From positions 1 through 64,000 of the forward strand of contig JAFKEE010000026.1 in NCBI GenBank assembly GCA_017307505.1: a stretch of 64,000 nucleotides of DNA. Reading direction: 5' to 3'. Position numbers and translations under genes: made by a program. Each line of letters opens with the position of its first letter. The stretch's first letter is position 1. The notes beneath the pieces were generated by a model. The model was not told the origin of the DNA. It saw only the letters and a program-made list of their open reading frames with translations, and did not search any database. This stretch comes from Acidobacteriota bacterium (GTDB lineage Bacteria > Acidobacteriota > Terriglobia > Bryobacterales > Bryobacteraceae). Of the stretch, positions 56,401 to 59,505 are shown piece by piece.

Positions 56401-56436
56401 TTGCGCGGGCCCTGGTTTAGTGTAAGAATTTACACT
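56401..56436 (+). promoter_or_regulatory. Candidate promoter with perfect inverted-repeat operator
   Basis: AGTGTAA (56419-56425) and TTACACT (56430-56436) are perfect complements around GAAT. The repeat ends 10 bp before the ATG at 56447. A possible -35 TTGCGC (56401-56406), a 17-bp spacer and -10 AAGAAT (56424-56429) would place the -10 inside the repeat, the geometry of a repressor site. I found no second copy in the window. A LexA-like SOS operator is an attractive reading but is not proven. Confidence 0.6.
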
Positions 56437-56446
56437 GAAAGCCAAC

Positions 56447-57619
56447 ATGCGCACCGTAGTCCATTGGGATGGCGACCGGTTCTTCGCCTCCATCGAGCAG
56501 GCTGCCGATAAGCGGCTGCGGAGCAGGCCTGTGGCTGTGGGCGGCGCGCGGCGCGGGGTGGTTTTGTCGGCGAGCATGGAGGCGCGGCGGCTGGGGATCC
56601 GGCCCGGCTGGCCGATGGCGCGGGCGCGGCGGGCGGTGCCTGCCCTGGTGGTGCTGCCGGCGCATTTCGATCTCTACGAACGATTCTTCGACCAGATTCT
56701 GGGACTGTGCCGCGAGACGACGCCTCTGGTGGAACCGGCCGAGGTGGGCGCGGCGTGGCTGGACCTGACCGGAGCGGAGCGCTGGAACCGGCAGGATGCC
56801 GAGCACGTGATCGCGAAGCTGCGCGGCACGGTGCACGAGTGGCTGCGGGTGTCGATCTCGGCGGGCATCGCCAGCAACAAGATGGTGGCGCGGATTGCGG
56901 CGCGGCTGCGGAAGCCGGGGGCGCAGACGGTGGTGCCGCCCGGGACGGAGCGCGGGTTTCTGGCTCCGCTGCCGCTGCGGATTCTGCCCGGGCTGCAGGC
57001 AGGTTCACTGGATGCACTGGAGGTGGCGGGGCTACGGACCATCGGGCAGTTCGCGGGCGCGCCCATTGATGCGCTGGCAGCGGTGCTGGGCCGCAGTGCG
57101 CTGCCGCTGCTGCGCCGGGCGCAGGGTGTTTCCGAAGAGCCGGTGGGCCGTAAGCGGGTGTCGGAACCGGGGTGGAGTGAATTTCTCGAGTTTCCGGAAG
57201 ACGTGTGGGAGGAACCGGTGCTGCTGGCGACATTGCGGCGCATGCTGGAGCGGCTGATGGCGCAGGTGCGCGCGGCCGGTGTCGAGGTAAGGCGGCTGGC
57301 GCTGGAAGTGCGGTATACGGATCACGAAGAGTCGCGCAAGAGTCTGGAACTGGCGGAGCCGACGGCGCTGGAGAGCGAGACATTCGCGCTGCTGCCGGGC
57401 CTGCTGGAAGGGGCGTGGACGCGGCGGGTGCGGCTGCGGGCGCTGACGTTGAAGGCAGGCCGTGTGTACCGGCCTTCACCACAGATGGAACTGTTTGCGC
57501 CGAACTCCACGCGGCGCGAGCACGATTTGAAGCTGGCTGCGATTGTCGACCGCCTGCGGCGGGAACACGGCGCCTCGATTGTGCGCCGCGGCGACGAACT
57601 GCAGTTGAAAACGGCATGA
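56447..57619 (+). CDS. Y-family DNA polymerase homologue lacking the second acidic motif (ImuB-like?)
   Basis: A 390-residue protein with the full Y-family layout. The palm starts at VVHWDGDRFFASIEQAADKR with Asp8 in place; fingers show VVLSASMEARRLGIRPG, then ISAGIASNKMVARIAA, a thumb helix-hairpin-helix (LPGLQAGSLDALEVAGLRTI) and a little-finger domain. At the site of the usual S-x-DE-A-Y-L-D, it reads Val-Gly101-Ala102-Ala-Trp-Leu-Asp, so the Asp-Glu pair is absent. QMELF (346-350) resembles a beta-clamp-binding motif. A non-catalytic role as in ImuB is likely. It overlaps the helicase gene by 4 bp. Confidence 0.88.
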   Translation: MRTVVHWDGDRFFASIEQAADKRLRSRPVAVGGARRGVVLSASMEARRLGIRPGWPMARARRAVPALVVLPAHFDLYERFFDQILGLCRETTPLVEPAEVGAAWLDLTGAERWNRQDAEHVIAKLRGTVHEWLRVSISAGIASNKMVARIAARLRKPGAQTVVPPGTERGFLAPLPLRILPGLQAGSLDALEVAGLRTIGQFAGAPIDALAAVLGRSALPLLRRAQGVSEEPVGRKRVSEPGWSEFLEFPEDVWEEPVLLATLRRMLERLMAQVRAAGVEVRRLALEVRYTDHEESRKSLELAEPTALESETFALLPGLLEGAWTRRVRLRALTLKAGRVYRPSPQMELFAPNSTRREHDLKLAAIVDRLRREHGASIVRRGDELQLKTA

Positions 57620-59505
57620 CGGCCGAGACGATACCGGGCGCGCGGGTGGGGCATGCGGTGTTCGGGCACGGCACGGTGGTGCGGGCGTGGAACGAACGGG
57701 TGGAGATTCGTTTCGACTCGTTTGGCGCGCTGACGCTGCCACGGCGGGCGCATCCGCTGGTGGCGGTGAGTACGCCGGAGCCCGAGGGCGCGCAGGTGGA
57801 TCAACGGGTATTGAACGAGATCCGCGCGGCGGTGCAGGCGGAACGGCAGGCGGGCGCGCGGCCGGTGGAGTGCGAAGTGGAGGAGGTCCACCGGGACGGT
57901 CCGCTGTGGTGCCTGCGGGTGGTGTCGGACGAGTTGGACGTGTCGCTGGAAGGGGCGCGGGCGTGGTGGCCGGACCCGGGCAAGGGCGCGGCGGAGATCG
58001 TGTCGATACTGCCGGAAGAGGGGGTGCTCTGGCTGCGCGGGCCCAGTGCGGCGGTGCCGTGCGCGGGCCGCAAGATCTACCTGTATCCGCCGGAGTTCCT
58101 GCAGAAGCTGGCCGACTTGTGGCAGGACAAGCAGTGGTCGGCGCAGGCGCTGGAGTGGTATGAAGCGATGTGCGCGGGCGCGAATCCGGCCGGCAGCGAG
58201 GGGTTGGACGATGCTCCTTATCCCTGGTTGAGACGGGCGCAGCGGCGGGCATTTCGATTGCCGCGGTGGCGGTTCTCGCTGCTGCACGGGCCGCCGGGTA
58301 CGGGCAAGACCACCACGTTGGGCGCGCTGCTGGCGCAGTTCCTGTTGCAGCGGCCGGAGGGGCGTGTGCTGCTGGTGGCGAATACGAATGCCGCGGTGGA
58401 CCTGGCTCTGCTGGCCGTGGACAAACAGTTGGAGCAGCGCGGCGAGCGTCCGGTGTGCCAGCGGATTGGAACGAATTTCGATACAGCGCAGTATGTGACC
58501 AGGCCGCACCTGCTGCCGGCGCACAGCCTGCACTTATTGGACTCGCTGGCGAAGCTGGAGGCGCAGTCGGCCGATCCGGCGGATGGGCCGACGTATGCGA
58601 CCTGGAAGGATGCGGTGGGCAAAGTGCGGTCGAAGCTGCGGGCGCGGCTCCTGGCGGCCTTGAAGCGGGCGCGGCTGGCGGCGATGACAACGGCGCGGGC
58701 GCTGATGGGTGTGCAGGATCTGAAGGACACGGGCGCGTACGACCTGATCGTCTTCGACGAAGCGAGCCAGGTGAGCCTGGCGCACGCGCTGGCGCTGCTG
58801 CCACTGGCGCGCAGAGCCCTGTTTGCCGGGGATCCCAGGCAGTTGGCTCCGGTGGTGAAGGCGTCGGCGGCGAATGGGCCGGCGGTGCGGTGGCTGGGCC
58901 GGACTGCCTTCGATGTGGTGGAGCAGGGTGAGGCGACCGAGTTTCTGGATGAGCAGTCGCGCATGGCCGAGCCCATCTGCCGGCTGGTGAGCGAGGCCTT
59001 CTATGAGGGACGGCTGCGGGTGGCGGGCGATGCGCTGGCCAGCCCGTTGTGGCATGCCGAGCGGGCCGGGCACGAACTGCGGGTGACTCGGGTGCGGAGC
59101 CAGGCGCTGTGGTCACCGCTGTACCAGGGTCTGGTGCGCGAGGAGTCGGCCCGGGCGATCGCGGAGGTGGTTCCACGGTTGTTGCTCGATGCGCGGCCGG
59201 CGCAGATCGCGGTGGTGACTCCGTATCGCGCGCAGCGGGCATTGCTCGAGCATCTGCTGCGGCGGCAGGGCTGCGGCGGGGTACTGGTGACCACTGCGCA
59301 TGCCGTGCAGGGCAGCGAACGTCACACCATCCTGTTCGATCCCGTGGACGCGGCGGGCCGGTTCTTGAGCCGCGAAGATCTGGGGCCGCGGCTGATCAAT
59401 GTCGCCTTGAGCCGGGCACAGGCGCGGCTGCTGCTGTTCCTGTCCGATTCGGACTGGAAGAATCCGGCGCTGGCCGGAGCACAGGGCTACCTGGCGGCCC
59501 AATAG
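57616..59505 (+). CDS. SF1 helicase (Upf1/Dna2-like) with N-terminal UvrD-type Tudor domain
   Basis: A 629-residue helicase. Residues ~8-50 (GARVGHAVFGHGTVVRAWNE, then VEIRFDSFGALTLPRRAH) resemble the small Tudor-like domain at the C-terminus of UvrD/PcrA. The motor has Walker A GPPGTGKT (225-232), Walker B DEAS (381-384), GDPRQLAP (405-412), LDEQSRM (445-450), HAVQGSE (562-568) and NVALSRAQARLL (595-606), typical of SF1B AAA_11/AAA_12 helicases. ATGA couples it to the polymerase-like gene. It overlaps the convergent redoxin gene by 19 bp. A role in DNA repair with its neighbour is inferred. Confidence 0.88.
   Translation: MTAETIPGARVGHAVFGHGTVVRAWNERVEIRFDSFGALTLPRRAHPLVAVSTPEPEGAQVDQRVLNEIRAAVQAERQAGARPVECEVEEVHRDGPLWCLRVVSDELDVSLEGARAWWPDPGKGAAEIVSILPEEGVLWLRGPSAAVPCAGRKIYLYPPEFLQKLADLWQDKQWSAQALEWYEAMCAGANPAGSEGLDDAPYPWLRRAQRRAFRLPRWRFSLLHGPPGTGKTTTLGALLAQFLLQRPEGRVLLVANTNAAVDLALLAVDKQLEQRGERPVCQRIGTNFDTAQYVTRPHLLPAHSLHLLDSLAKLEAQSADPADGPTYATWKDAVGKVRSKLRARLLAALKRARLAAMTTARALMGVQDLKDTGAYDLIVFDEASQVSLAHALALLPLARRALFAGDPRQLAPVVKASAANGPAVRWLGRTAFDVVEQGEATEFLDEQSRMAEPICRLVSEAFYEGRLRVAGDALASPLWHAERAGHELRVTRVRSQALWSPLYQGLVREESARAIAEVVPRLLLDARPAQIAVVTPYRAQRALLEHLLRRQGCGGVLVTTAHAVQGSERHTILFDPVDAAGRFLSREDLGPRLINVALSRAQARLLLFLSDSDWKNPALAGAQGYLAAQ

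What the first reader, a model, noticed from the sequence alone, without database searches (positions are those of the whole stretch)
56447..59505. Two-gene operon: catalytically defective Y-family polymerase plus Tudor-tagged SF1B helicase
Sequence: the polymerase homologue keeps Asp8 but has Gly101-Ala102 where Y-family polymerases carry the catalytic Asp-Glu, and it keeps a QMELF clamp-binding-like motif at 346-350. It overlaps by ATGA a full SF1B helicase that carries a UvrD/PcrA-like Tudor domain at its N-terminus instead of the C-terminus. Knowledge: ImuB is a non-catalytic Y-family protein that links DnaE2 to the sliding clamp. Inference: this may be a different damage-tolerance module, in which a non-catalytic clamp adaptor recruits a helicase.
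Basis: partly seen in the sequence, partly recalled or inferred. Interest (0 to 1): 0.88.

Follow-up and report, generated by a model that had tools for sequence, protein, structure and literature searches.

The report
Dead polymerase partnering a mutagenic DnaE2
This bacterium carries a polymerase relative that has lost its catalytic residues and most likely acts, when DNA is damaged, as a docking platform for a second, error-prone DNA polymerase in place of the usual ImuA-ImuB kit; the helicase gene beside it is an addition of this one lineage.

Summary
The two genes are real. The Y-family protein (56447-57619) keeps Asp8 but has Gly-Ala where the catalytic Asp-Glu should be; no orthologue read has Asp-Glu. 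It keeps a QxxLF clamp motif and a RecA-like tail, and overlaps an SF1B helicase gene by ATGA. The helicase pairing is not conserved: 1 of 15 genomes with the Y-protein has a close relative of the helicase, and 0 of 19 named loci. A sister genome keeps the helicase but has deleted the Y-gene. The conserved partner is a second DnaE, present in 14 of 15 Y-protein genomes and 0 of 45 others. Both genes sit behind a LexA box; the own genome's only three boxes precede lexA, this gene and that dnaE. Family members with the Y-protein lack imuA-imuB; the other 39 have imuB. The DnaE groups with DnaE2s lying beside inactive Y-proteins in Desulfobacterota. Best reading: a DnaE2B-iPolY(-RecA) mutasome, a type already predicted (PMC6511836, PMC12926913), here in Bryobacterales, with a helicase inserted in one lineage.

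The parts
56419..56436 (.). LexA (SOS) box AGTGTAA-N4-TTACACT, 10 nt before the Y-protein start
   Evidence: Perfect match; the own genome's 3 sites (<=1 mismatch; reversed control pattern: 1) precede lexA, this gene and the second dnaE; box with <=2 mismatches within 80 nt upstream of 27 of 30 named orthologues. LexA binding itself not tested
56447..57619 (+). Catalytically defective Y-family protein (iPolY), 390 aa
   Evidence: Pfam IMS/IMS_C; AlphaFold pLDDT 87.5, pTM 0.59, Foldseek best matches DinB/Dpo4; own clade 99/99, apart from ImuB, active PolY and DinB rows
56468..56470 (+). Codon of Asp8 (retained)
   Evidence: Aligned with DinB D8; invariant in 12
56747..56752 (+). Codons of Gly101-Ala102 in place of the catalytic Asp-Glu
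57482..57496 (+). QMELF, sliding-clamp-binding-like motif (residues 346-350)
   Evidence: Q346, L349, F350 invariant in 12; QxxLF in 25 of 25 named; binding not tested
57527..57598 (+). RecA-N-terminus-like C-terminal segment (residues 361-384)
   Evidence: Best-scoring window against five RecA N-termini lies here in 26 of 26 orthologues; 8 of 26 beat all 1000 shuffles, but the window's own score is reached by 180 of 1000; helix 355-374 in the model
57616..59505 (+). SF1B (UPF1/IGHMBP2-like) helicase, 629 aa, overlapping ATGA
   Evidence: Pfam AAA_11, AAA_12; PDB relatives include DNA2, SMUBP-2, UPF1
57637..57699 (+). Weak PcrA/UvrD-Tudor-like stretch (residues 8-28), unproven
   Evidence: PF21196 14.4 bits, below cut-off 23.9
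58288..58311 (+). Walker A GPPGTGKT of the helicase (residues 225-232)
   Evidence: read in the sequence, aligned

Best explanation
The Y-family gene encodes the non-catalytic platform (iPolY) of an SOS-induced mutasome whose working polymerase is a DnaE2B-type C-family polymerase encoded elsewhere in the genome (G000 contig C66:79584-82595). Proposed mechanism: DNA damage inactivates LexA, derepressing both loci; iPolY docks on the sliding clamp through QMELF and on RecA through its C-terminal RecA-like segment, and brings DnaE2B to stalled or gapped DNA for error-prone synthesis, taking the place of ImuA-ImuB-DnaE2A. The SF1B helicase was added to the operon in this genus, so it would be co-induced, but it is not a core subunit. 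Shown by computation: residue loss, motif conservation, shared box, co-occurrence, mutual exclusion with ImuAB, phylogenetic placement of the dnaE, non-conservation of the helicase pairing. Inferred: all physical contacts, LexA binding and induction, and the mutagenic activity.
For: Second dnaE at >=60% identity in 14 of 15 iPolY genomes and 0 of 45 others (G125 counted as iPolY+ because its contig starts with the first codons of the gene beside a perfect box). Parsimony on a one-gene DnaE1 tree needs five switches; in 5 of 5 independent pairs the dnaE goes with iPolY. 27 of 29 sites (<=1 mismatch) in the 15 genomes lie before lexA (6), recA (3), dinB (1), iPolY (11) or this dnaE (6); reversed control 4. 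LexA of the own genome: TIGR00498, 149.5 bits, over its cut-off. iPolY and dnaE are linked in 7 of 30 named loci (7 of the 19 with >=2 kb downstream), in three of them within 25 nt or overlapping. imuB in 0 of 15 iPolY genomes and 39 of 39 others of the family: 36 found, and complete divergent imuA-imuB-dnaE2 cassettes in G198, G021 and G181. DnaE tree: this dnaE plus nine DnaE2s adjacent to inactive Y-proteins in Desulfobacterota form one clade, SH-aLRT 98; 10 of 10 keep the Asp pair ADIDLD. AU test does not reject one clade for the two groups of inactive Y-proteins, p 0.42, and Gly at position 101 is shared by 8 of those 9.
Against: G113 has iPolY but no such dnaE was found (98% complete draft). 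In the window genome and most others the two genes are unlinked. Five pairs cannot reach p<0.05 (0.0625). ImuAB was scored in that test as the complement of iPolY, so its 5 of 5 adds nothing. Only 11 of 15 have the box before iPolY at <=1 mismatch. The RecA-like tail is not individually significant in the window protein and similar tails occur in active PolYs and in the own DinB. The two groups of inactive Y-proteins are not sisters in the best tree. The third catalytic Asp of the dnaE was not located. No expression or binding data.
Confidence: 0.8

Rival explanations
1. First reader's module: the non-catalytic clamp adaptor exists to recruit the SF1B helicase to stalled forks.
For: ATGA overlap and a shared upstream box, so probable co-induction.
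Against: The pair occurs in 1 of 15 iPolY genomes; 0 of 19 named loci with >=2 kb downstream have the helicase; G198 deleted iPolY and kept the helicase, dN/dS 0.061; the helicase relatives in G193 and G225 stand elsewhere in genomes without iPolY.
Confidence: 0.06
2. Compatible with the main explanation, about the helicase only: it is a lineage-specific member of the SOS regulon that shares the promoter but has its own role (fork or R-loop clearing, or defence), independent of any mutasome.
For: The same syntenic spot holds iPolY+helicase (G000), iPolY alone (G080), helicase alone behind a perfect box (G198); purifying selection between G000 and G198; weak similarity to helicase parts of anti-phage proteins PLuB and ProA, far below their cut-offs.
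Against: Only two close genomes to judge from; function not testable here.
Confidence: 0.6
3. The Y-protein is a true ImuB orthologue that diverged.
For: Same loss of active site and same presumed role; found where imuAB is absent.
Against: Separated from 12 ImuBs of the family by a 100/100 branch and from 7 by 99/99; the proteins end within about 25 residues of the RecA-like segment, so no room for an ImuB-C domain; its dnaE is not in the DnaE2A clade.
Confidence: 0.03
4. The Y-protein still polymerises, using other ligands or a rearranged metal site.
For: D8, D10 and the overall fold are kept.
Against: Two of three catalytic carboxylates are Gly-Ala or Gly-Ser in every orthologue read; no conserved acid nearby.
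Confidence: 0.05

Closest known systems
DnaE2B-iPolY-RecA putative mutasomes (scDinB2-like in Streptomyces; gbDinB2-like with wider spread), PMC6511836 and PMC12926913
   Same: Inactive Y-family protein with clamp motif and RecA-NT-like tail, a DnaE2 outside DnaE2A, no imuA or imuB found in the genome, SOS setting
   Different: Keeps Asp8 (8 of the 9 Desulfobacterota inactive Y-proteins fetched lost it); genes mostly unlinked but sharing a box; a helicase inserted in one lineage. 'Acidobacteri' has 0 occurrences in the main text of PMC12926913 (supplements not read)
ImuA-ImuB-DnaE2A mutasome
   Same: Dead Y-family platform plus error-prone C-family polymerase, SOS-controlled; mutually exclusive with the system here in 54 of 54 family genomes
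   Different: No ImuA, no ImuB-C domain, different DnaE2 clade; the S-x-D-F-x C-terminal end of 12 of 12 DnaE2A-type rows is absent in 10 of 10 rows here
DinB (Pol IV)
   Same: Fold; best NCBIfam hits
   Different: Catalytic Asp-Glu lost; every Pol IV cut-off listed is missed; the genome has a separate DinB with Asp-Glu (L001)
IGHMBP2/UPF1-like SF1B helicases (TIGR00376)
   Same: AAA_11/AAA_12 core
   Different: 104 bits against a cut-off of 348.9; own N-terminal region

Membership tests
DnaE2B-iPolY-RecA mutasome | Y-family protein with disrupted active site | tested here: met
   Gly-Ala in 12 of 12; Gly-Ala in 23 and Gly-Ser in 2 of 25 named (9 of the 25 are the same contigs as in the 12)
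DnaE2B-iPolY-RecA mutasome | Associated DnaE2 outside DnaE2A | tested here: met
   Co-occurrence; one clade with DnaE2s adjacent to inactive Y-proteins, 98.
DnaE2B-iPolY-RecA mutasome | No imuA or imuB in the genome | tested here: met
   0 of 15. The ImuA query gave only matches over query residues 12-145 at 30-36% in frames of 247-450 aa there, taken for RecA homologues; only some were checked as RecA
DnaE2B-iPolY-RecA mutasome | RecA-NT motif in the iPolY tail | tested here: inconclusive
   Best window at the same place in 26 of 26, 8 of 26 with 0 of 1000 shuffles as good, but 180 of 1000 for the window protein
DnaE2B-iPolY-RecA mutasome | Member of the gbDinB2-like group (G. bemidjiensis DinB2) | tested here: inconclusive
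   Reference not held; Desulfobacterota inactive Y-proteins next to dnaE2 used as proxy, common clade not rejected, p 0.42, not recovered in the best tree
DnaE2B-iPolY-RecA mutasome | Physical complex | not testable with these tools
   No complex prediction offered
ImuB | Phylogenetic place within ImuB | tested here: not met
ImuB | ImuB-C domain after the RecA-NT motif | tested here: not met
   Proteins end within about 25 residues of the motif
ImuA-ImuB-DnaE2A | DnaE2A-type polymerase (NF004225, cut-off 939) | tested here: not met
   582.3 bits; the G029 and G198 DnaE2s score 1272.8 and 1329
DinB / Pol IV | Catalytic Asp-Glu | tested here: not met
UvrD/PcrA Tudor domain (helicase N-terminus) | PF21196 over its cut-off | tested here: not met
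   14.4 of 23.9 bits
IGHMBP2 family (TIGR00376) | Score over cut-off | tested here: not met
   104 of 348.9 bits

The most novel reading that the evidence does not exclude
The SF1B helicase has become a working subunit of SOS mutagenesis in this genus: first coupled to the iPolY-DnaE2B mutasome by the shared operon, then retained behind the same LexA box in the sister species when iPolY and its DnaE2B were exchanged for a divergent ImuA-ImuB-DnaE2A cassette, so that it serves whichever mutasome is present.
Probability: 0.12. Interest if true: 0.7.

Novelty: new member of a known kind. Interest (0 to 1): 0.48.

Why it matters
[quoted passage not shown] A family in which the two kits exclude each other in 54 of 54 sampled genomes, with at least five switches by parsimony and one of them back to ImuA-ImuB-DnaE2 inside the window's own genus, is a natural replacement experiment: it predicts that the two kits do the same job and makes that testable by swapping them between close relatives.

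Tried and rejected
Considered and rejected: a helicase-recruiting adaptor (pair not conserved); ImuB orthology; a decaying gene (Y-gene of G000 against G080 dN/dS 0.22; frame open to a stop codon in the 25 named orthologues); phage origin of the helicase (no match in 50,697 phage records; 78 of 72,556 plasmid records match, none over 80% of the query, the 12 rows shown cover 36-39%). Led nowhere: single-sequence model of the Tudor-like stretch; Pfam on the same stretch, below cut-off; looking for inactive Y-proteins among the 30 best Desulfobacterota loci of the Y alignment: 23 gave a frame, 22 active and one misframed. The inactive ones were found instead where a second search, with the dnaE, gave hits next to Y-hits.

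Rows left out or changed: three rows (G133, G117, G105) with extreme branches, probably wrong-frame translations, were dropped from the second DnaE1 tree; the first tree with them, and with G125 scored as lacking iPolY, gave 6 changes and 5 of 6 concordant pairs, the sixth not differing. G101, G165 and G222 of the 54 family genomes were in neither tree (DnaE1 fragmentary or not found). In both calls ImuAB was scored as the complement of iPolY. The Fisher values printed ignore relatedness and are not used.
Full report
Observation. The reading frames are as described: 56447-57619 (390 aa) and 57616-59505 (629 aa), overlapping by ATGA. The first is a Y-family protein (Pfam IMS 123.5 bits, IMS_C 43.9 bits), aligned over residues 2-297 with solved E. 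coli DinB at E 3e-39. In that alignment D8 and D10 are kept while the catalytic pair of SLDEAYLD reads EVGAAWLD. In 12 sequences (window included) G101, A102 and A103 are invariant, and so are Q346, L349 and F350 of the clamp-like motif. AlphaFold gives pLDDT 87.5 and pTM 0.59 and Foldseek returns DinB/Dpo4 structures, but no residue-level superposition of the metal site was obtained.

The second protein is an SF1B helicase of the UPF1/IGHMBP2 kind. The Tudor domain remains unproven: one sub-threshold Pfam hit, 14.4 of 23.9 bits, and an uninformative model.

The pair is not conserved. Among 250 genomes of the class, Y-proteins at 53% identity or more occur in 14 (the next best match is 35-36%), and in a fifteenth, G125, whose contig begins inside the gene; all 15 belong to one family of which 54 genomes were sampled. 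Helicase matches of any strength occur in 57 of 250, but close ones over most of the length in only 4: the own genome, G198 (96%), G193 (47%) and G225 (39%). Only the own genome has both. The same syntenic place, between a kinase-like and a sialidase-like gene (names recalled), holds both genes here, the Y-gene alone in G080 and the helicase alone in G198. In G198 the box and about the first five codons of the Y-gene survive and then run into the helicase start, a deletion scar; the helicase evolves under purifying selection (dN/dS 0.061 against the own genome). Of 30 named loci with the Y-gene, 19 have at least 2 kb downstream (from the lengths); none has the helicase.

The conserved partner. 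In G080 a second DnaE lies about 1.2 kb downstream of the Y-gene. Searched in 60 genomes (54 of the family, 6 of the order), relatives of it at 60% identity or more occur in 14, all among the 15 Y-protein genomes, and in 0 of the 45 others, whose long matches are at 27-37% (DnaE1 and other DnaE2s; short fragments reach 44%). G113 is the exception. In the window's genome it is at C66:79584-82595. Among the named loci the two genes are linked in 7 of 30; in L137 and L142 they are about 20 nt apart, in L140 they overlap.

Shared regulation. The palindrome AGTGTAA-N4-TTACACT stands 10 nt before the window's Y-gene. With at most one mismatch it occurs three times in the 9.39-Mb genome (reversed control: once): before lexA (TIGR00498 over cut-off), before the Y-gene and before the second dnaE. 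In the 15 Y-protein genomes there are 29 such sites: 11 before the Y-gene, 6 before the second dnaE, 6 before lexA, 3 before recA, 1 before dinB, and two (G219:C4, G057:C28) before other genes; the reversed control gives 4. In the 45 other genomes there are 4 sites against 10 for the control: two in G198, before lexA and the helicase, and two in G029, which lacks the Y-gene, before recA and before imuA of an imuA-imuB-dnaE2 operon. With two mismatches allowed, 27 of 30 named Y-genes have the site within 80 nt upstream (41 of 6000 random 80-mers from the same loci, draws over true sites included). No site with 4 mismatches or fewer stands before imuA in ten other fetched imuAB cassettes, that of G198 included, so the box is a feature of this sub-lineage.

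Replacement. An ImuB query over the 54 family genomes finds imuB in 36. G198, G021 and G181 gave only weak hits, but each has a complete imuA-imuB-dnaE2 cassette of one divergent type (L110, L111, L252). The 15 Y-protein genomes have none, and the ImuA query gives only RecA-like matches there. On a DnaE1 tree of 48 family genomes plus 3 outgroups (quick method, one gene) the state changes five times; in 5 of 5 independent pairs the second dnaE goes with the Y-gene; p 0.0625 is the smallest value that five pairs can give. G198 is nested among Y-protein genomes and has exchanged the whole kit.

Placement. The Y-protein forms its own clade (99/99), apart from ImuB, active PolY and DinB rows (the first, smaller tree gave it 70/65 but already a 100/100 split from ImuB). 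In a sample of 297 genomes of the phylum of G250 (a Candidatus Zymogenaceae MAG; Desulfobacterota by recall) I found Y-proteins lacking the catalytic pair directly beside a dnaE2, and used nine. All nine lack Asp-Glu; 8 of 9 have Gly at position 101, as here; 8 of 9 have lost Asp8, which the window lineage keeps. The window lineage's dnaE groups with those nine dnaE2s (SH-aLRT 98), apart from ImuAB-linked DnaE2 and from DnaE1, and both have [PA]WD after the catalytic Asp motif where ten of the twelve DnaE2A-type rows have PSG. The two groups of inactive Y-proteins are not sisters in the best tree, but sisterhood is not rejected (p 0.42). So inactivation may have happened once or twice.

Known kind. 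Timinskas and Venclovas 2019 (PMC6511836; abstract and passages seen) and the 2026 survey (PMC12926913; abstract and passages, part 1 of section 19, and section 22 seen) describe DnaE2B-iPolY-RecA modules in genomes without imuA/imuB, supported there by AlphaFold models; [quoted passage not shown] The present system fits that description. 'Acidobacteri' does not occur in the main text of the 2026 paper; supplements were not read. In the listings of literature searches I saw no paper on this lineage's system or on its box; PMC8565304 (passages) does not mention Acidobacteria.

Mechanism. Most likely LexA cleavage co-induces iPolY (with the helicase, here) and DnaE2B; iPolY bridges clamp, RecA filament end and DnaE2B; DnaE2B does the error-prone synthesis. 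Contacts, induction and mutagenesis are inferred. The helicase is a lineage-specific SOS gene that is maintained without iPolY.

Noticed in passing
L110 (G198), L111 (G021), L252 (G181): A divergent type of imuA-imuB-dnaE2 cassette (ImuB 53-64% alike among the three, about 25% to the family's usual ImuB), one of them in the window's sister genome.
   Followed up: partly
L093 (G029:C24), site 6850: A canonical imuA-imuB-dnaE2 operon behind the same LexA box, in a genome on the branch next to the main Y-protein clade; recA there has the box too.
   Followed up: partly
G113 (L251): The only Y-protein genome in which the second dnaE was not found; its contig ends 1.8 kb after the Y-gene.
   Followed up: no
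L137 and L145: Records titled Acidimicrobiia and Arcobacter carry Bryobacterales-type Y-genes (60 and 72% identity); the taxon labels of these MAGs look wrong.
   Followed up: no
L089 site 4982 and L092 site 5026: LexA-box-like sites with one mismatch before unidentified genes; chance or new regulon members.
   Followed up: no
lexA loci L079, L084, L085: The box touches the predicted lexA start codon (gap 0 nt), so LexA would cover its own start region.
   Followed up: no
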